Origin: Apteryx mantelli
Lineage: Eukaryota > Chordata > Aves > Apterygiformes > Apterygidae
Direction of reading: 5' to 3'
Length of the DNA: 64,000 bases
NCBI RefSeq assembly: GCF_036417845.1
Contig: NC_090019.1
Location: forward strand, 181,290-245,289
Below the pieces are notes generated by a model. It was not told where the DNA came from and did no database searches. It saw only the letters and a list, made by a program, of their open reading frames with translations. Position 1 is the first letter of the stretch; each line of letters begins with the position of its first letter. Both the position numbers and the translations under genes were made by a program. Below, in pieces: positions 8,889 through 41,942 of this stretch.

Positions 8889-9014
8889 GACCTGAACAAG
8901 CGCCTGTCGCTGCCGGCCGACATCCGCCTGCCCGAGGGCTGCCTGGAGCGGCTGACGCTGCACAGCCCCCTGTTCGAGCGGCCCCTGAGCCGCCGCCTGC
9001 GCCGCGTCTCCCTG
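8889..9014 (+). CDS. CDK16: CDK16 coding exon c
   Basis: Acceptor CCGGCAG, donor CCCTG|GTACAA, 126 nt in phase 0/0. It reads [17 protein letters not shown], then [20 protein letters not shown] and RRVSL. This is the highly conserved segment immediately N-terminal to the kinase domain. The last 49 nt are the source of the tandem copies downstream. Confidence 0.97.
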
Positions 9015-9940
9015 GTACAAACCAGTACAAACCAGTATAAACCAGTACAAACCAGTATAGACCAGTACAAACCAGTATAGACCAGTATAAGCCACTAGGG
9101 ACTCCAGGCAGAGCCAGGCCCCCCCCCGCAGCCCCCTGTTCGAGCGGCCCCTGAGCCGCCGCCTGCGCCGCGTCTCCCTGGTACAAACCAGTATAAACCA
9201 GTATAAACCAGTACAAACCAGTACAAACCAGTACAAACCAGTATAGACCAGTATAAGCCACTAGGGACCCCAGGCAGGGCCAGGCCCCCCCCTGCAGCCC
9301 TCTGTTCGAGCGGCCCCTGAGCCGCCGCCTGCGCCGCGTCTCCCTGGTACAAACCAGTACAAACCAGTATAAACCAGTACAAACAAGTATAAACCAGTAT
9401 AGACCAGTATAGACCAGTATAAGCCACTAGGGACCCCGGGCAGGGCCAGGCCCCCCCCCGCAGCCCCCTGTTCGAGCGGCCCCTGAGCCGCCGCCTGCGC
9501 CGCGTCTCCCTGGTACAAACCAGTACAAACCAGTACAAACCAGTACAAACCAGTATAAACCAGTATAAACCAGTATAGACCAGTATAAGCCACTAGGGAC
9601 CCCAGGCAGAGCCAGGCCCCCCCCCCCGCAGCCCCCTGTTCGAGCGGCCCCTGAGCCGCCGCCTGCGCCGCGTCTCCCTGGTACGAACCAGTATAAACCA
9701 GTATAAACCAGTACAAACCAGTATGGACCAGTACAAACCAGTATAAGCCACTAGGGACCCCGGGCAGAGCCAGGCCCCCCCCTGCAGCCCTCTGTTCGAG
9801 CGGCCCCTGAGCCGCCGCCTGCGCCGCGTCTCCCTGGTACAAACCAGTACAAACCAGTACAAACCAGTATAAACCAGTAAAGACTAGTATGGATTAGTAC
9901 GGACCAGTATAAACCAGTATAGACCAGTATGAAGGGGGGT
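9015..9940 (+). repeat. Tandem array containing five copies of the exon c 3' tail
   Basis: About 167-bp units. Each holds a near-perfect copy of the last 49 nt of exon c (9132-9180, 9298-9346, 9464-9512, 9632-9680, 9788-9836), encoding [17 protein letters not shown]. Each copy is preceded by a C-tract and GCAG and followed by the same GTAC donor. Between copies lie 10-bp repeats ACCAGTATAA/ACCAGTACAA and a conserved CACTAGGGACCCC block. Confidence 0.95.
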
Positions 9941-13331: not shown

Positions 13332-13446
13332 GGCACCTACGCCACGGTGTACAAGGGCCGCAGCAAGCTCACGGAGAACCTCGTCGCCCTGAAGGAGATC
13401 CGCCTGGAGCACGAGGAGGGGGCGCCCTGCACCGCCATCCGCGAGG
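13332..13446 (+). CDS. CDK16: CDK16 coding exon e with Gly loop, catalytic Lys and PCTAIRE helix
   Basis: Acceptor CCCGCAG. It reads [20 protein letters not shown], then [18 protein letters not shown]. It contains the end of the Gly loop, the ATP-binding Lys (ALKE) and the cyclin-facing PCTAIRE motif. Phase needs the exon to end GAG G at 13446 so that Val forms with the next exon. The following bases are GGTGGGG, so the GT lies one base late: there is one G too many for a canonical in-frame donor. Confidence 0.95.
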
Positions 13447-14440
13447 GGTGGGGCTTGCGCCCCGGGGGGGCGGGGCTTCGCGCGAGGGGGCGTGGCCTCG
13501 CACCAGGGGGCGGGGATTTGTGCGAGGGGGCGGGGCCTCGCAGGGGGCGAGTAACTATCCCGGGGGGGGGGGAGTTTTGCACCAGGGGGTGGGTTTTTGT
13601 GGCACGAGGGGGCGGGGCCTCGCGCGAGGGGGCGGGGGGCCTCGCACGGGGGGGAACTTTGCGCTGGGGGTGTGGTTTTTTTGTGGCACGAGGGGGCGGG
13701 GCCTTTCACGAGGGGGCGGGGCTTCGCACAGGGGGGCGAGTAACCACCCCGGGGGGGGGATTTTGCACCGGGGGGCGTTTTTTTGTGGCACAAGGGGGCG
13801 GGGCCTTTCACGAGGGGGCGGGGCCTAACACCAGGGGGCGGGTCCTCGCCACAGGGGGGTGAGTAACCACCCCGGGGGGGGAATTTTGTGCCCGGGGGGG
13901 CGTTTTTTTGTGGCACGAGGGGGTGGGGCCTTTCACGAGGGGGTGGGGCCTAACTCCGGGGGCGGGGCCTTGCACGGGGGGGGGGGTGAGTAATGAGCCC
14001 AGTGGGGGGCAATTTCCACGCCACGGGGGGCAATTTCACGCTGGGGGCGGGTTTTTGTCGTGCAAGGGGCGGGGCCTCGCACGAGGGGGCGGGGCCTCGC
14101 ACGAGGGGCGGGGCCTCGCATGGGGGGCGGGGGCCTCGCACGGGGGAGGGGAATTTCACACCGGAGGGAGGCAATTTTGCGCCGGAGGGTGGGTTTTTGC
14201 CGCACGAGGGGGCGGGGCCTTGCACGAGGGGGCGGGGCCTCACACCAGGGGGCGGGGCTTCACACGGGGGGGCAAACAATGACCCCGGTGGGGGGGCAAT
14301 TTCGTGCCGTGGGGGGGCAGTTCCGCCCCAGAGGGGGGCAATGTCACCCCGGGGGGCGGGGTTTTGTCACACGGGGGGCGGGGCCTTGCGCGGGTGGGCG
14401 GGGCCTCACGCGAGGGCTCCGCCCCCCCCTCCCGCTGCCC
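13447..14440 (+). repeat. GGGGCGGGGCCTCGCACGAG minisatellite in CDK16 intron
   Basis: Repeats of GAGGGGGCGGGGCCT with CGCACGAG, plus larger units with GAGTAACCACCCCGGGGGGG and TTTTTTTGTGGCACGAGG. CpG-rich throughout. The CGCACGAGGG element returns in the intron at 18.99-20.24 kb. Confidence 0.88.
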
Positions 14441-17608: not shown

Positions 17609-17619
17609 GTGGCGGGGCG

Positions 17620-18786
17620 GGCAGGGGCGGGGCCAGGGGCGGGGCCAGGGGGGCCAGGGGTCCCACGGGTGCCAGCACCCATGGGTGGGGGAGAAGAGCC
17701 ATTTTGGGAGGCGGGTGAAGGTCTTGCACGTGGGTGACGGGTCTCCAAGCACCCTTGGGTGGCCCTCGTGCGAGGCGTGCGAGGGGCGTGCGAGGGGCGA
17801 GGGGGTCCCAAGGGTGCCAGCACCCATGGGTGCTGCAGAAGAGCCATTTTGGGAGGCGGGTGAAGGTCTTGCACGTGGGTGACGGGTCTCCAAGCACCCT
17901 TGGGTGCCCCTTGTGCGAGGCGTGCGAGGGGCGTGCGAGGGGCGAGGGGGTCCCAAGGGTGCCAACACCCATGGGTGCTGCAGAAGAGCCATTTTGGGAG
18001 GCGAGCGAGGGCCTTGCACGTGGGTGACGGGTCTCCAAGCACCCTTGGGTGCCCCTCGTGCGAGGCGTGCGAGGGGCGTGCGAGGGGCGAAGGGGTCCCA
18101 AGGGTGCCAGCACCCATGGGTGCTGCAGAAGAGCCATTTTGGGAGGCGGGTGAAGGTCTTGCACGTGGGTGACGGGTCTCCAAGCACCCTTGGGTGCCCC
18201 TCGTGCGAGGCGTGCGAGGGGCGTGCGAGGGGCGAAGGGGTCCCAAGGGTGCCAGCACCCATGGGTGCTGCAGAACGGCCATTTTGGGAGGCGAGCGAGG
18301 GCCTTGCACGTGGGTGACGGGTCTCCAAGCACCCTTGGGTGCCCCTCGTGCGAGGCGTGCGAGGGGCGTGCGAGGGGCGAGGGGATCCCACGGGTGCCAG
18401 CACCCATGGGTGCTGCAGAACGGCCATTTTGGGAGGCGGGTGAAGGTCTTGCACGTGGGTGACGGGTCTCCAAGCACCCTTGGGTGCCCCTCGTGCGAGG
18501 CGTGCGAGGGGCGTGCGAGGGGCGAGGGGGTCCCGAGGGTGCCGGCACCCATGGGTGCTGCAGAACGGGCGTTTCGGGAGGTGGGTGACAGTCTTGCACG
18601 TGGGTGGCGGGCGCCCAGCACCCATGGGCGCCCCTCGTGCGAGGCGTGCGAGGCGCCGGAGCGACTCCGACGCCCACGAGCACCCATGGGTGGGGTAAAA
18701 GAGGAGTTTTCGGGGGCGGGCGAGGGTGTTGCACGTGGGTGGCGGGCGCCCAGCACCCATGGGTGCCCCTCGTGCGAGGCGTGCGA
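17620..18786 (+). repeat. 145-bp tandem repeat left of the gap
   Basis: The phrase GACGGGTCTCCAAGCACCC recurs at an almost exact 145-base spacing (near 17737, 17882, 18027, 18172, 18317, 18462). Units contain AGCACCCATGGGTGCTGCAG, GCCATTTTGGGAGGCG and CGTGCGAGGGGCGTGCGAGG. The array runs straight into the N block, which suggests the repeat broke the assembly. Confidence 0.93.
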
Positions 18787-18986
18787 NNNNNNNNNNNNNN
18801 NNNNNNNNNNNNNNNNNNNNNNNNNNNNNNNNNNNNNNNNNNNNNNNNNNNNNNNNNNNNNNNNNNNNNNNNNNNNNNNNNNNNNNNNNNNNNNNNNNNN
18901 NNNNNNNNNNNNNNNNNNNNNNNNNNNNNNNNNNNNNNNNNNNNNNNNNNNNNNNNNNNNNNNNNNNNNNNNNNNNNNNNNNNNNN
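18787..18986. other. Assembly gap (200 N)
   Basis: A run of 200 N, a length often used as a placeholder. Different repeat families flank it (145-bp units left, CGCACGAGGG units right). At least two CDK16 exons are missing in this interval, so the true gap is probably larger than 200 bases. Confidence 0.97.
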
Positions 18987-20280
18987 GAGGGTCTCGCACG
19001 AGGGTCTCGGGGGGGTCGCGGGGGGGGTAAAGGGACACGGGGGGGGTCCCAAAACGCCCGGGGGGGCCCCACGGGCGACCCCGATCCGTCCCCGAGCGCC
19101 CTGAGCTCGGTCCCCGACGCGTCTCGCACGAGGGTCTCGCACGAGGGTCTCGGGGGGGTCCCGGGGGGGGGGAAAGGGACACGGGGGGGGTCCCAAAACG
19201 CCCGGGGGGGCCCCACGGGCGACCCCGATCCGTCCCCGAGCGCCCCGAGCTCGGTCCCCGGCGCGTCTCGCACGAGGGTCTCGCACGAGGGTTTTGGGGG
19301 GGTCCCGGGGGGGTCGTGGGGGGTCGTGGGGACACGGGGGGGGTCCCAAAACGCCCGGGGGGGCCCCACGGGGGACCCCGATCCGTCCCCCAGCGCCCCG
19401 AGCTCGGTCCCCGGCGCGTCTCGCACGAGGGTCTCGCACGAGGGTCTCGCACGAGGGTTTTGGGGGGGTCGCGGGGGGGGGAAAGGGACACGGGGGGGGT
19501 CCCAAAACGCCCGGGGGGGCCCCACGGGCGACCCCGATCCGTCCCCGAGCGCCCCGAGCTCGGTCCCCGGCGCCTCTCGCACGAGGGTCTCGCACGAGGG
19601 TCTCGCACGAGGGTTTCGGGGGGGTCCCAGGGGGGGGAAAGGGACACGGGGGGGGTCCCAAAACCCCCGGGGGGGCCCCACGGGCGACCCCGATCTGTCC
19701 CCGAGCGCCCCGAGCTCGGTCCCCGGCGCCTCTCGCACGAGGGTCTCGCACGAGGGTTTCGGGGGGGTCGCGGGGGGGGGGGAAAGGGACACGGGGGGGG
19801 GTCCCAAAACGCCCGGGGGGGCCCCACGGGCGACCCCGATCTGTCCCCGAGCGCCCCGAGCTCGGTCCCCGGCGCCTCTCGCACGAGGGTCTCGCACGAG
19901 GGTCTCGCACGAGGGTTCCGGGGGGGTCGCGGGGGGGGGAAAGGGACACGGGGGGGGTCCCAAAACGCCCGGGGGGGCCCCACGGGGGGACCCCGATCCG
20001 TCCCCGAGCGCCCCGAGCTCGGTCCCCGATCCGTCTCGCACGAGGGTCTCGCACGAGGGTCTCGCACGAGGGTTTCGGGGGGGGTCGCGGGGGGGGTAAA
20101 GGGACACGGGGGGGTAAAGGGACACGGGGGGGGTCCCAAAACGCCCGGGGGGGCCCCACGGGGGACCCCAAACCCTTCGTTACCCCCCCGAGCTCGGTCC
20201 CCGGCGCCTCTCGCACGAGGGTCTCGCACGAGGGGGTGTTTTTTTTGGGGGGGGGGGTCCCCCGTGGGGGGGGGGACGCG
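18987..20280 (+). repeat. CGCACGAGGGTCT tandem repeat right of the gap
   Basis: About eight units of roughly 150-165 bp: CTCGCACGAGGGTCTCGCAC, G-tract, GGGAAAGGGACACGG, GGTCCCAAAACGCCCGGGGG, GACCCCGATCCGTCCCC, GAGCTCGGTCCCCGGCG. No kinase exon is embedded. Very long open frames on both strands here cross the gap and are artefacts. Confidence 0.92.
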
Positions 20281-20283
20281 CAG

Positions 20284-20381
20284 GGGCGTGGGCTGCATCT
20301 TCTACGAGATGTCCACGGGGCGGCCGCTCTTCCCCGGCTCCACCGTCGAGGAGCAGCTGCACTTCATCTTCCGCCTCCTCG
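20284..20381 (+). CDS. CDK16: CDK16 coding exon h (C-lobe)
   Basis: Acceptor ACGCGCAG; the first G completes a Trp (TG|G) expected from the missing exon, then [20 protein letters not shown] and [12 protein letters not shown], ending G|GTAACG in phase 1. This is the alpha-F to alpha-G region. Its last ~28 nt are the source of the tandem copies downstream. Confidence 0.96.
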
Positions 20382-22440
20382 GTAACGGGGGGGGTTTTGG
20401 GGTGAATTTAGGCGGTTTTGGGCAAATCCGGGCGGTTTTGGGGCGGTTTCAGGGGGGGATTTGGGGGGGTTTTTTGGGGAAAAGAGGGGCGATGGGGGAA
20501 ATCGGGCTGCGCTTCATCTTCTGCCTCTTCGGTACGGGGAGGTTTGGGGGCAAATTTGGGCATTTTTGGGGCAAATTTGGGTGGAAACGGGGTGTTTTGG
20601 GGTGTTTTGGGGCGATTTGGGGCGTTTTGGGGGGGTTTTGGGGGGGGATTCGGGGGGATTTTGGGGGAAAAGAGGGGCGATGGGGGGGGAAATCGGGCTG
20701 TGCTTCATCTTCCGCCTCCTCGGTAACGGGGGGTTTTGGGGCAAATTTGGGCATTTTAGGGGCAAATTTGGGTGGAAACGGGGTGTTTTGGGGTGTTTTG
20801 GGGCGATTTGGGGCCTTTTGGGGTGTTTTGGGGGGGGGATTCAGGGGGATTTTTGGGGGGAAAAGAGGGGCGATGGGGGGGAATCGGGCTGCACTTCATC
20901 TTCCGCCTCCTCGGTACGGAGAGGTTTTGGGGCAAATTTGGGCATTTTGGGGTAAATTTGGGTGGAAATGGGGCATTTTGGGGTGTTTTGGGGCGATTTG
21001 GGGCGTTTTGGGGGGTTTCGGGGGGGATTTGGGGGGATTTTGGGGAAAAGAGGGGCGATGGGGGGGGAATCGGGCTGCGCTTCATCTTCCACCTCGGTAT
21101 GGGGCGTTTTGGGCAAATTTGGGCGATTTTGGGCAAATTTGGGTGTTTTGGGGGCGTTTTGGGGTGTTTTGGGGTGTTGGGGGGGATTTGGGGGGGTCTC
21201 GGGGGTGAATTTGGGGGGATTTTTGGGGAAAAGTGGGTTGATGGAGGGGGGGAATCAGGGCAGCTGCGCTTCATCTTCCACCTTGGTACGGGGTGTTTTG
21301 GGGCAAATTTGGGCGTTTTGGGGCAAATTTGGGCATTTTTGGGGCGATTTGGGGTGTTTTGGGGTGTTTTTGGGGGTGTTTCGGAGGGATTTGGGGGGTC
21401 TCGGGGGTGAATTCGGGGGATTTTTGGGGGGGAAAAGAGGGGCGATGGGGGGGGAATCAGGGCAGCTGCGCTTCATCTTCTGCCTCCACAGTACAGGGCG
21501 TTTTTGGGGCAAATTTGGGCGTTTTTGGGGCAAATTTGGGTGTTTTGGGGGAAAATTTGGGCGTTTTGGGGGCGTTTTGGGGGGGGATTCAGGGGGATTT
21601 TTGGGGGGAAAAGAGGGGCGATGGGGGGGAATCGGGCTGCACTTCATCTTCCGCCTCCTCGGTACAGGGAGGTTTTGGGGCAAATTTGGGCGTTTTGGGG
21701 TAAATTTGGGTGGAAACGGGGCATTTTGGGGCGATTTGGGGCGTTTTGGGGGGGATTCAGGGGGATTTTCGGGGGGAAAAGAGGGGCGATGGGGGGGGAA
21801 TCGGGCTGCACTTCATCTTCCGCCTCCTCGGTACGGAGAGGTTTTGGGGCAAATTTGGGCGTTTTGGGGTAAATTTGGGTGGAAACGGGGCATTTTGGGG
21901 CGATTTGGGGCATTTTGGGGGGGGTTCGGGGGGGATTCGGGGATTTTTGGGGGGAAAAGAGGGGCGATGGGGGGGGAATCGGGCTGCGCTTCATCTTCTG
22001 CTTCCTCAGTATGGGGAGTTTGGGGCAAATTTGGGCGTTTTGGGGCAAATTTGGGTATTTTGGGGCGATTTGGGGTGTTTTGGGGGGGTCTTGGGGGGGA
22101 TTCGGGGGATTTTGGGGGAAAAGAGGGGCGATGTGGGGGGAATCGGGGCAGCTGCGCTTCATCTTCCGCCTCCTCGGTACGGGGTGTTTTGGGGCAAATT
22201 TGGGCATTTTGGGGCAAATTTGGGTGGAAACGGGGTGTTTTGGGGTGTTTTGGGGTGTTTTGAGGTGTTGCGGGGGGGTTGGGGGGGTCTCGGGGGGGAT
22301 TTGGGGGGATTTTGGGGGAAAAGAGGGGCGATGGGAGGGAATCGGGGCAGCTGCGCTTCATCTTCCGCTTGCTTGGTATGGGGAGGTTTTGGGGCAAATT
22401 TGGGTGGTTTGGGGCAAATTTGGGCATTTTGGGGTGTTGC
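20382..22440 (+). repeat. Tandem array with eleven copies of the exon h 3' tail
   Basis: Units of about 170-195 bp, each with a copy of CTGCACTTCATCTTCCGCCT then CCTCG|GTACGG. Copies lie near 20511, 20702, 20893, 21080, 21269, 21471, 21641, 21811, 21990, 22160 and 22356. The remaining unit is intron-like (GGGGCAAATTTGGGCGTTTT, GGAAAAGAGGGGCGATGGGG). Several copies carry substitutions in the tail. Four (near 21269, 21471, 22160, 22356) retain CAGCTGCGCTTC, extending further into the exon. Confidence 0.95.
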
Positions 22441-23809: not shown

Positions 23810-23915
23810 GGACGCCCACGGAGGAGACGTGGCCGGGCATCCAGGGCAACGAGGAGTTTCGGGCTCACAAATACCCCCTGTACCGCCCTGAGGGGCTGCT
23901 GCGCCACGCGCCCCG
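23810..23915 (+). CDS. CDK16: CDK16 coding exon i
   Basis: Acceptor CCGGCAG, donor CCCCG|GTGAGC, in phase 1, out phase 2. It reads [20 protein letters not shown], then [14 protein letters not shown], the TPTEETWPG region of the C-lobe that is characteristic of the PCTAIRE kinases. Confidence 0.97.
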
Positions 23916-38100: not shown

Positions 38101-38163
38101 CCCCCCCAATTTTGGGGTCCCCCCCCCACCCCAGCTGACCGGCTTCTCCCGCAGCCCCCCGCC

Positions 38164-38266
38164 ATGTCGTCGGAAGAGGGGAAGCTCTTCGTGGGGGGGC
38201 TCAACTTCGACACGGACGAGCAGGGCCTGGAGCAGCACTTCAGCTCCTTCGGGCCCATTTCGGAGG
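38164..38266 (+). CDS. RBM3: RBM3 coding exon 2 (start codon, RNP2)
   Basis: Exon 38155-38266 with acceptor TCTCCCGCAG; ATG at 38164 in good context (CCGCCATGT). It reads [20 protein letters not shown], then [14 protein letters not shown], and ends in phase 1 at GAGG|GTGAGC. It contains the RNP2 motif LFVGGL. Confidence 0.97.
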
Positions 38267-41200
38267 GTGAGCACCCATGGGTGGGGGGGGTCCTGGTGGA
38301 GGTCCCCGTCTGCCCCCGCACCCCATATGTGGAGGTAGCACCCATGGGTGGTGCTCCTGGGGGTTCTTGTCTTCTCCCAGACCCCGTATTTGGAGGTAGC
38401 ACCCATGGGTGGTGCTCCTGGTGGTTCTCATCTCCTTCAGAACCTATATTTTGGTGGGACACCCATGGGTGGTGGTTCTGGTAGAGATCCTGGAGGTCCT
38501 TATCTGCTTCTGGACCCCATATTTGGAGGTGGCACCCATGGGTGGTGGACCTGGGAGTTCCCATGTCTTCTTAGAGCTTATATTTTGGTGGGACTCCCAT
38601 GGGTGGGGGTCCTGGTAGAGGTCCCGGGGGTCCTTATCTGCTCCTGGACCCCATATTTGGAGGTAGCACCCATGGGTGGGGGTCCTGGGGGTTCCCATCT
38701 TCTCCCAGAACCTATATTTTGGTGGGACACCCATGGGTGGGGGTCCTGGTGGAGGTCCTGGAGATGCCTATCTGCCCCCAGACCCCATATTTGGAGGTAG
38801 CACCCATGGGTGGTGGTCCTGGGGGGTTCCCATCTTTCTCCAGAACCTATATTTTGGTGGGACACCCGTGGGTGGGGGTCCTGGTGGAGGTCCTGGAAGT
38901 CCCCATCTGCCCCTGCACCCCATATTTGGAGGTAGCACCCATGGGTGGTGCTCCCATTTACTCTTAGAACTTATATTTGGAGGTAGCACCCATGGATGGA
39001 GATTCTAAAAGCTTCCATTTTCTTCCAGAACCTATATTTTAGGGGGACACCCATGGGTGGGGGTCCTGGTAGAGGTCCTGGAGATCCCTATCTGCTTCTG
39101 AACCCCATATTTGGAGATAGCACCCATAGATAGCACCCATAGGTGATGGTCCTAGGAATTCCCATCTTCTCCCAGAACCTATATTTTGGTGGGACACCCA
39201 TGGGTGGGGGTCCTGGTAGAGGTCCTGGAGATCCCTATCTGCTTCTGGACCCCATATTTGGAGGTAGCACCCATGGGTGGTGCTCCTGGGGGTTCTCATC
39301 TCTCCCCAGAACCTCTGTTTTGGTGGGACACCCATGGGTGGGGGTCCTGGTGGAGGTCCTGGGGGTCCCCATCTGCCACCACACCCCGTATGTGGAGGTA
39401 GCACCCATGGGTGGTGCTCCTGGGGGTTCCCATCTCCTCTTAGAGCTTGTATTTTGGTGGGACACCCATGGGTGGGGGTCCTGGTAGAGGTCCCGGGGGT
39501 CCCCAACTGCCCCCACACCCTGTATTTGGAGGTAGCACCCATGGGTGGGGGTCCTGGGGGTTCCCATCTTCTCCCAGAACCTATATTTTGGTGGGACATC
39601 CATGGGTGGGGGGATCTGGTAGAGGTCCTGGGGGTCCCTATCTGCTTCTGGACCCCATATTTGGAGGTAGCACCCATGGGTGGTGGTCCCCATCTGCCCC
39701 CAGACCCCATATTTGGAGATAGCACCCATAGATAGCACCCATAGGTGATGGTCCTAGGAATTCCCATCTTCTCCAGAACCTATATTTTGGTGGGACACCC
39801 AAGGGTGGTGGTCCTGGTGGAGGTCCTGGAGGTCCCTATCTGCTTCTGGACCCCATATTTGGAGGTAGCACCCATGGGTGGTGCTCCTCGGGGTTCTCAT
39901 CTACTCCCAGAACCTGTATTTGGAGGTAGCACCCATGGGTGAGTGTCCTGGTAGAGGTCTTGAGGGTCTCTATGTGTTCCTGGACCCTATATTTGGAGGT
40001 AGCACCCATGGGTGGAGGTCCTGGGGGTTCCCATCTTTTCCCAGAACCTATATTTTGGTGGGACACCCATGGGTGGGGGTCTTGGTAGAGGTCCTGAGGA
40101 TCTCTATCTTCCCAAGGACCCCATATTTGGAGGTAGCACCCATGGGTGGGGGTCCTAGCGATGTCCCTGGTGATCTTCATCTTCTCCAGGACCCCATGTT
40201 TCGGAGGAGCACCCACGGCTTGGGGTCCTGGGGGTCCTTATCTCCCCTTAGATCCCATATTTTTGAGGGACGCCCATGGGTGGAGCTGTCGGGAGTGATC
40301 CTGGAAATGTCTGTGGTCTTGCTAATCCTGTGTTTTTGGGATGCACCCATGGGTGAGAGTCCTGGTGGTCTCCATCTTGCCCCAGACCCAATATTTTTGA
40401 GGAACACCCCTAGATGAAGCCCCCAAAAGCATCCTTGGACGTCTTTATGGTGTCCCTACCCCCATATCTTGAGGAGCACCCATGGGTGGGAGTCCTGGTG
40501 GTCTCTATCTTGCCCCAGACCCCATATTTTTGAGGAACATCTATAGATAGAGATTCTAAAAGCATCTTTGAACGTCTCTATGGGGTCTCTACTCTTATAT
40601 TTTGAAGAAACACCCATGGGTGAGAACGTTGGTGGTCTCCACCTTGCCCCAGACCCCCTATTTTTGAGGAACACCCATAGATGAAGCCCCCAAAGGCATC
40701 TTTGAACGTCTTTACGGTGTCTCTACTCCCCTATCTTGAGAAGCACCCATGGGTGGGGGCTCTGGGGAGTCTCCATCTTGCTCCAGACCCCATATTTTTG
40801 AGGAACACCCATAGATGAAGTCCCCAAAAGCATCTTTGAACATCTTTATGGTGTCCCTACCCCCATATTTTGAGGAGCGCCCATGGGTGGGAGTCCTGGT
40901 GGTCTCCATGTTGCCCCAGACCCCATATTTTTGAGGAACATCCCTAGATGAAGCCCCTAAAAGCATCCTTGAATGTCTTTATGGTGTTCCTATTCCCGTA
41001 TCTTGAGGAGCACCCATGGGTGAGGGTCCTAGCGGTGTCCCTGGGTCTCCCCATTTTCTCTGGGACCCCATATCTTGAAGGAGCACCCATGGGTGGTAGT
41101 CTTGGTGGTCTCCATCTTGCCCCAGACCCCATATTTTTGAGGAACATCTATAGATAGAGATTCCAGAAGCATCCTTAAACGTCTTTATGGTGTCTCTACA

Positions 41201-41890
41201 CCTATATCTTGAAGGAGCACCCCTGGGTGGGAACTTTGGTGGTCTCCATGTTGCCCCAGACCCCACATTTTTGAGGGACACTCCTAGATGAAGCCTCCAA
41301 AAGCAGTCTTGAACGTCTTTATGGTGTCTTTATACCTGTATCTTGAAGGAGCACCCATGGGTGGTAGTGTTGGTGGTCTCTATCTTGCCCTAGACGCCAT
41401 ATTTTTGAGGGATACCTATGGCTGGACCTCCCTAAAGCATCTTTGAACGTCTCTGTGGTGTCTCTACGCCCATATTTTGAGGAGCACCCATGGGTGGTAG
41501 TCTTGGTGGTCTCCATCTTGCTCCAGACTCAATATATTTGAGGAACATTTATAGATAGAGATTCCAGAAGCGTCTTTAAATGTCTTTATGGTGTCTTTAC
41601 ACCTATATCTTGAAGGAGCATCCATGGGTGGGAACTTTGGTGGTCTCCATGTTGCCCTAGACCCCATATTTTTGAGGAACGCCCCTAAATGAAGCCCCCC
41701 AAAGCATCCTTGGACATCTTTATGGTGTCTTTATGTCTGTATCTTGAAGGAGCACCCATGGGTGGGATTCTTGGTGGTCTCCATGTTGCCCTAGATGTCA
41801 TATTTTTGAGGGACACCCATGGTTGGAGCTCCCCAAAGCGTCTTTGAACGTCTTTACGGTGTCCCTACCCCCGTATCTTCAAGAGCACCC
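38267..41890 (+). repeat. CACCCATGGGTGG minisatellite in RBM3 intron
   Basis: Units of 60-70 bp with the palindromic core GCACCCATGGGTGG, plus GTCCTGGGGGTTCCCATCTT, CCAGAACCTATATTTTGG and CCCCATATTTGGAGGTAG. From about 40200 units are longer and more divergent (ATATTTTTGAGGAACACCC, GTCTTTATGGTGTC). No exon is seen in 3.6 kb. Confidence 0.92.
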
Positions 41891-41942
41891 ATGGGTGGGG
41901 GGGTCCCGGCCCCCCATTTGACCCCCTTCTCCCACCCCACAG

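What the first reader, a model, noticed from the sequence alone, without database searches (positions are those of the whole stretch)
20382..22440. A second array in CDK16 built from an exon end: eleven copies of the exon h tail
About 28 nt of the exon 3' end (LHFIFRLLG) with the following GTACGG donor is repeated eleven times in units of 170-195 bp. Two separate exons of one gene have nucleated minisatellites at their 5' splice sites. This suggests a shared mechanism, such as slippage or recombination starting at exon-intron borders (for instance at a G-rich intron start or an R-loop edge).
Basis: partly seen in the sequence, partly recalled or inferred. Interest (0 to 1): 0.85.

Follow-up and report, generated by a model that had tools for sequence, protein, structure and literature searches.

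The report
Exon end copied through neighbouring intron
The end of one coding piece of a cell-cycle kinase gene is repeated eleven more times in the following intron; it is a clear new example of 'exon stuttering', a form of DNA instability described in 2026 on the tiniest chromosomes of birds, and it is not special to splice donor sites.

Summary
The last ~28 nt of a CDK16 exon (window 20284-20381) plus its splice donor recur 11 more times in the next intron (donor-to-donor spacing 150-205 bp), far above controls; exon 3 of the same gene has 5 further copies of its last 52 nt. Across 34 donor and 32 acceptor junctions of five genes on the same 245-kb contig, edge copies occur at both exon ends (4/34 and 3/32; at a published threshold 3/34 and 1/32). 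CXXC1 has 28 copies of an exon end. About 90% of intron positions in CDK16 are repeated nearby, and this fades over the first tens of bases of exons on both sides; captured introns do not share a G-rich start; the CDK16 paralogue on a larger contig has none (0 of 430 30-mers). This is 'exon stuttering' on avian dot chromosomes (Hron et al. 2026, PMC12954441). Best reading: local tandem duplications fill the introns, sometimes bite into an exon edge, and are tolerated because exon definition picks the exon-proximal donor. A new member of a known kind; the decoy-donor arrays make useful natural splicing tests.

The parts
20284..20381 (+).
   Evidence: tblastn with recalled human CDK16 and PDB match; boundaries
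20354..20381 (+). exon-derived part of the repeat unit (CAGCTGCACTTCATCTTCCGCCTCCTCG); homology begins here or a few bases to either side, by copy
20382..22440 (+). higher-order array: exon tail + donor + G-rich short-period intron repeat, donor-to-donor spacing 150-205 bp
20504..20531 (+). decoy copy 1; its donor would add 150 nt in frame without a stop
20695..20722 (+). decoy copy 2, donor GTAACG as in the exon
20886..20913 (+). decoy copy 3
21072..21096 (+). decoy copy 4, 3-nt gap
21261..21285 (+). decoy copy 5, 3-nt gap
21463..21490 (+). decoy copy 6
21634..21661 (+). decoy copy 7
21803..21830 (+). decoy copy 8
21981..22008 (+). decoy copy 9
22149..22176 (+). decoy copy 10
22348..22375 (+). 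decoy copy 11, last; short-period repeats without exon sequence follow to about 23750
23810..23915 (+). next CDK16 exon, acceptor CGGCAG|GGACGC
8889..9014 (+). CDK16 exon 3, source of the other array (last 52 nt)
9015..9879 (+). array with five copies of the exon-3 end plus donor, spacing 156-168 bp, intron part (GTAYAAACCA)n
38155..38266 (+). RBM3 exon 1; weak, marginal capture of its 3' edge by the intron-1 array
   Evidence: score 24 against swapped maximum 22 and shuffle maximum 23; junction-crossing hits at 74-91% identity; below the published threshold

Best explanation
This is exon stuttering on a dot-like chromosome. Shown: the introns of five genes on this contig are mostly local tandem repeats, and in some the repeated block reaches tens of bases (26-55 nt in the strong donor cases) into an exon and copies that edge with its splice site. 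Inferred: local tandem duplications (by replication slippage or repair, and by unequal exchange between existing repeats) arise at random in and around introns; those confined to introns, or that only copy an exon edge outwards, survive, and those that break an exon are removed. In the three strong donor arrays the unit is 137-207 bp; repeats elsewhere on the contig have many other periods. Copies spread and shrink by further unequal exchange and drift like intron sequence. They are tolerated because the flanking introns are long, splicing works by exon definition, and the donor nearest the upstream acceptor wins, so the decoys are normally spliced out with the intron. No function of the array is needed.
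For: Copying above all controls at 7 of 66 exon edges, both ends (about 0.5 expected if edges were exchangeable with their 131-133 controls, my arithmetic), and 4 of 34 introns at the published threshold of 42.1 bits. Gradient: 30-mers with a second copy 100-1500 bp away on the intron side are 27/31 at +300 into the intron, 17/33 for the first 30 intron bases, 3/33 for the last 30 exon bases and 0/16 at -120; acceptor side 26/29, 5/31, 3/31, 0/11. CDK16 as a whole: introns 2422 of 2690, exons 8 of 100; paralogue on an 11.9-Mb contig: 0 of 330 and 0 of 100. Decoy tails drift as the intron parts do, mean identity 0.857 against 0.846. TRF covers 81% of intron and 2% of exon bases. Hron et al. describe the same: edge of the exon with donor or acceptor, exon part 20-187 bp, median 36, 1-44 copies, 190 of 236 introns on dot chromosomes. 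Tolerance: with identical competing donors and flanking introns of 365 nt the upstream donor was used exclusively in minigenes (PMC9225289, passages).
Against: No RNA, no second individual and no second species was available, so splicing and instability are untested here. That this contig is a dot chromosome, and the species a bird, is inferred (245 kb, GC-rich, repeat-filled introns, likeness to the published pattern). The three strong donor cases carry 5, 11 and 28 copies and the acceptor cases 1 to 4, an asymmetry that random duplication alone does not predict, though numbers are small. Periods are not uniform: of 189 TRF arrays with period of 50 or more and three or more copies, 94 are at 50-99 bp. 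Eight of 11 decoy donors of exon h score at least as high as the real one by a recalled matrix, so some use is possible; and in the same minigenes two weakened donors in large exons led to exon skipping. The exon copy itself is closer to the decoys in its tail (0.877) than in its intron part (0.796), which could hint at exchange or constraint on the tail.
Confidence: 0.83

Rival explanations
1. Arrays start specifically at exon-intron borders or 5' splice sites, through slippage, R-loop edges or G-rich intron starts.
For: Three strong cases are at donors, with the highest copy numbers; the exon-h intron is strongly G-rich at its start (G 0.50, skew 0.72).
Against: Exon starts are captured too; coverage falls, not rises, towards borders; G fraction of the other two strong cases is 0.18 and 0.30, below the median of 0.45; unit starts lie at differing places inside exons.
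Confidence: 0.07
2. The copies are kept by selection, as alternative donors or regulatory elements of CDK16 splicing.
For: All 11 decoys keep GT; 8 of 11 score at least as high as the authentic donor by a recalled matrix, and the first would add 50 codons in frame without a stop.
Against: 14 of 28 tail columns are also invariant among the decoys, so GT is not exceptional; tail and intron parts drift alike; stop-free 50-codon reads are the rule in this G-rich array, 1473 of 1843 starts; only 2 of 11 decoys are in frame, and one of these two has stops on the way.
Confidence: 0.06
3. Assembly artefact in a GC-rich, hard-to-sequence region.
For: A 200-N gap lies 1.3 kb upstream of exon h; CXXC1-e shows a repeating series of spacings (157, 156, 137, 167, 146, 167) that could reflect mis-assembly.
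Against: Exon-h copies differ from each other (mean identity 0.857, gaps, unequal spacing), which a duplicated read would not give; the same kind of pattern was verified with raw nanopore data for chicken PHF8 (PMC12954441).
Confidence: 0.04

Closest known systems
Exon stuttering / sequence stuttering on avian dot chromosomes (Hron et al. 2026, PMC12954441; abstract, sections 7, 8 part 1, 9 and 16 and search passages seen)
   Same: Edge of a coding exon with its splice site copied in tandem through the adjacent repeat-filled intron; exon part tens of bp; several to tens of copies; absent from the paralogue on a larger chromosome
   Different: The genome here is 1.50 Gb and unnamed; CDK16 is not named in the paper's main text, its supplementary gene list was not readable here; donor and acceptor sides apart, the decline across the border and decoy donor strength are measured here and I did not see them in the parts read
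Ordinary intronic minisatellites
   Same: Tandem units of 10 to about 200 bp, diverged copies
   Different: They fill most of the introns of neighbouring genes, are nested, and take in exon ends
Competing 5' splice sites under exon definition (Carranza et al. 2022, PMC9225289; abstract and passages seen)
   Same: Several equal donors downstream of one acceptor
   Different: Minigenes with two donors 52 nt apart, against natural arrays of 5 to 28 copies over up to about 4.5 kb

Membership tests
[quoted passage not shown]
   exon h 4 of its 11 copies at 50-52 bits, exon 3 5 copies at 96-103 bits, CXXC1-e 28 copies, CXXC1-d (acceptor) 1 copy; maximum of five shuffled-intron runs 24.3 (plus strand only)
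Exon stuttering | copied exon part reaches the exon border and includes the splice site | tested here: met
   exon ranges 70-98 of 98 and 75-126 of 126; copies cross the junction
Exon stuttering | intron largely covered by tandem repeats | tested here: met
   TRF 81% of intron bases of the five genes; 2422 of 2690 intron 30-mers of CDK16 repeated nearby
Exon stuttering | absent from the paralogue on a non-dot chromosome | tested here: met
   CDK16 paralogue on C25 (11.9 Mb): 0 of 430 30-mers
Exon stuttering | located on a dot chromosome of a bird | tested here: inconclusive
   contig of 245,289 bp, GC 0.71 in exons and 0.61 in introns; chromosome identity and species not known
Exon stuttering | intron length varies between individuals | not testable with these tools
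   one assembly only

The most novel reading that the evidence does not exclude
The decoy donors are sometimes used: exon-end arrays on dot chromosomes would then make length-variable, partly in-frame isoforms (for CDK16 a 50-residue insertion after LHFIFRLLG from decoy 1), so that intron instability varies kinase isoforms between individuals, and selection against decoy use would shape which arrays persist.
Probability: 0.08. Interest if true: 0.7.

Novelty: new member of a known kind. Interest (0 to 1): 0.4.

Why it matters
It extends a phenomenon published mainly for chicken in 2026 to named genes (CDK16, CXXC1, and more weakly IMP4 and RBM3) of another, larger genome, and separates two ideas that one gene cannot: repeats do not start at splice donors, they fill introns and lap onto exon edges from both sides. 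Arrays such as the one after CXXC1 exon e, with 28 copies of a 55-nt exon end and an intact CAA|GTGAGT donor in 27 of them, are ready-made natural tests of how the spliceosome picks the first of many equal donors.

Tried and rejected
Rejected: R-loop or G-rich start; nucleation at 5' splice sites; selection on decoys; clustering in CDK16 beyond chance (2 of 12 donors against 1 of 22, Fisher P 0.28); similarity falling with distance along the exon-h array (Spearman -0.08, P 0.56). Tried without use: a survey of kinase exons genome-wide, because loci could not be cut; UBA1 (144 kb) and WDR13 (window only) as neighbours gave no credible match; two literature searches with no hit and one with three papers, of which one was used. 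One search was a script that printed nothing (an option that tblastn does not take). Not decided: whether capture at CXXC1-f, IMP4-b and RBM3-1 is old duplication or chance similarity; they fail the published threshold.

Limits: exon borders come from tblastn plus GT/AG and are incomplete (RBM10 partial; CXXC1 residues about 216-338 and one RBM3 exon not found; CDK16 exons for human residues 266-346 not found), so some 'introns' tested span unplaced exons. Of 39 placed exons, the first placed exon of each of five genes has no acceptor in the count, nor have CXXC1-e and RBM3-4, whose starts are unknown (32 left); the last placed exon of each gene has no donor in the count (34 left). In one search exon IMP4-d was left out on both sides: its next intron is 249 bp, below my limit of 250, and the script then skipped its acceptor as well. 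Introns were cut at 5 kb. My version of the published screen searched the plus strand only and shuffled single bases. The splice-site matrix is recalled.

Full report
What is there. The window is positions 181290-245289 of contig C43 (245,289 bp) of an unnamed 1.50-Gb genome in 408 contigs. It holds most of CDK16 on the + strand and, from 38155, RBM3. The exon in question is window 20284-20381. Its last 28 nt with the donor recur eleven times up to 22375. Nine copies align without gaps and two carry a 3-nt gap. Spacing is 150-205 bp with a median of 183. Each unit is the exon tail, the donor, a G-rich intron stretch that is itself a short-period repeat, and a largely conserved unit end (GGGGAAAAGAGGGGCGATGGGGG). 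After the last copy the intron continues to about 23750 as short repeats without exon sequence.

More than chance. The exon's last 30 nt score 53 against its own intron. Thirty-three other exon tails reach at most 21 in the same intron and 100 dinucleotide shuffles at most 28. With the published chicken screen's program and threshold (blastn-short, at least 20 nt, 42.1 bits; plus strand only here), exon h gives 4 hits of 50-52 bits and exon 3 gives 5 hits of 96-103 bits; five runs on shuffled introns reached at most 24.3. Seven of the eleven exon-h copies do not reach that threshold.

Is it about donors? I fetched 80 kb upstream on the same contig and placed exons of IMP4, CXXC1 and RBM10 besides CDK16 and RBM3, 39 exons in all. 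Of 34 donor edges 4 exceed every swapped tail and every shuffle (CDK16-3, CDK16-h, CXXC1-e, and RBM3-1 marginally); of 32 acceptor edges 3 do (IMP4-b, CXXC1-d, CXXC1-f). At the published threshold it is 3 donors and 1 acceptor. Neither difference is significant (Fisher P 1.0 and 0.61). Two CDK16 donors out of 12 against 1 of 22 elsewhere is not significant either (P 0.28). Copy numbers do differ: 5, 11 and 28 at the strong donors, and 1 to 4 at the acceptors; the sample is too small to say more.

The decline across the border. For 33 donors and 31 acceptors I asked whether a 30-mer has a second copy 100-1500 bp away on the intron side. At +300 in the intron 27/31 and 26/29 do, for the 30 intron bases next to the border 17/33 and 5/31, for the 30 exon bases next to it 3/33 and 3/31, and from 120 nt inside the exon 0/16 and 0/11; in between single hits occur (1/26 at 90 nt in on the donor side, 1/23 at 75 nt in on the acceptor side). 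The acceptor side falls off some tens of bases earlier within the intron, as expected from the branch point and pyrimidine tract (inference). Exon edges are thus the rim of an intron-wide process. In CDK16 as a whole 2422 of 2690 intron 30-mers and 8 of 100 exon 30-mers have a nearby second copy; in its paralogue on C25 (11.9 Mb) 0 of 330 and 0 of 100.

Testing the proposed cause. The first 100 intron bases of the three strong donor cases have G fractions of 0.18 (CDK16-3), 0.30 (CXXC1-e) and 0.50 (CDK16-h); the other 31 donors have a median of 0.45. CDK16-3 and CXXC1-e share a (GTAYAAACCA)n intron repeat instead. Unit starts lie 52, 26-33 and 55 nt inside the exons, with no obvious common sequence before them. 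The units of the three strong arrays are 156-168, 150-205 and 137-207 bp; other arrays on the contig have many periods (189 arrays of period 50 or more, 94 of them at 50-99 bp), so the unit length is not a general rule.

Fate of the copies. Among the eleven decoys the exon-derived part is 0.857 identical on average and the intron part 0.846, so the exon-derived part is not specially preserved. The exon copy itself is 0.877 identical to the decoys in the tail and 0.796 in the intron part, which may hint at exchange with, or constraint on, the tail. GT is kept in all eleven, but 14 of the 28 tail columns are invariant among them too. By a matrix from memory 8 of 11 decoy donors score at least as high as the real one. 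Decoy 1 would extend the exon by 150 nt in frame without a stop; stop-free 50-codon reads are common in this array (1473 of 1843 starts). In CXXC1 28 copies of the last 55 nt of an exon follow over about 4.5 kb, and 27 carry the same CAA|GTGAGT as the exon.

How it is probably tolerated. In minigenes with two identical donors and flanking introns of 365 nt the donor nearer the upstream acceptor was used exclusively, and genome-wide the sites closest across the exon are preferred under exon definition; when both donors were weak, large exons were skipped (PMC9225289; abstract and passages). Exon h has 3.4 kb of intron after it. The intron before it is not fully known, because exons are missing upstream, but at least 1.3 kb lies between the N gap and the exon. 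So the first, real donor should win. This step is inferred; no RNA was available.

What is known. Hron et al. 2026 (PMC12954441; abstract, sections 7, 8 part 1, 9 and 16 and search passages seen) describe 'sequence stuttering' on chicken dot chromosomes and 'exon stuttering' where the exon edge with the donor or acceptor is copied: 115 genes, 236 introns, 190 on dot chromosomes (3.4% of 5,572 dot introns), exon part 20-187 bp with a median of 36, 1-44 copies, not seen in corresponding paralogues elsewhere; 183 of 192 such introns vary in length among chickens. They note cases in other birds and leave the mechanism open (replication stress or quadruplexes, or meiotic gene conversion). The case here meets each of those features that I could test. 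Four of 34 introns at their threshold is more than 190 of 5,572 (P 0.029), but my genes were taken because they adjoin a known case, so this is not an independent rate. One search for the two stuttering terms and 'dot chromosome' found only that paper. 'cdk16' does not occur in its main text; the supplementary gene list could not be read here.

Verdict. A true observation; a wrong emphasis on donor borders; a known phenomenon. Its main use is as a set of clean natural constructs for splice-site choice and as evidence that the repeats come from the intron side.

Noticed in passing
C43:136255-140808 (outside the window; L012:4966-9519): CXXC1 exon e is followed by 28 tandem copies of its last 55 nt, 27 with an intact CAA|GTGAGT donor; spacings repeat in a series of about 930 bp, a third level of repetition.
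   Followed up: partly
window 17609-20283: The CDK16 exons for human residues about 266-346 (catalytic loop and activation segment) were not found; a 200-N gap at 18787-18986 probably hides them. A genome search with that piece lists 110 matches (lower bound), none on C43.
   Followed up: partly
window 13440-13452: The donor after CDK16 exon 5 reads GAGG|GGTGGGG, one G too many for a GT start in the right phase; a homopolymer error or a real change.
   Followed up: no
window 9015-9930 and L012 (CXXC1 intron e): Two unrelated genes share the same 10-bp intron repeat (GTAYAAACCA)n right after a captured exon end.
   Followed up: partly
C43:130571-130666 (L011, CXXC1 intron c): The start of the CXXC-domain exon (first 38 nt) has one extra copy about 168 bp upstream: acceptor-side capture.
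   Followed up: partly
window 38267-41942: RBM3 intron 1 is filled with units containing GGTAGCACCCATGGGTGG, which resembles the exon-1 end and donor; capture of the exon edge is only marginal.
   Followed up: partly
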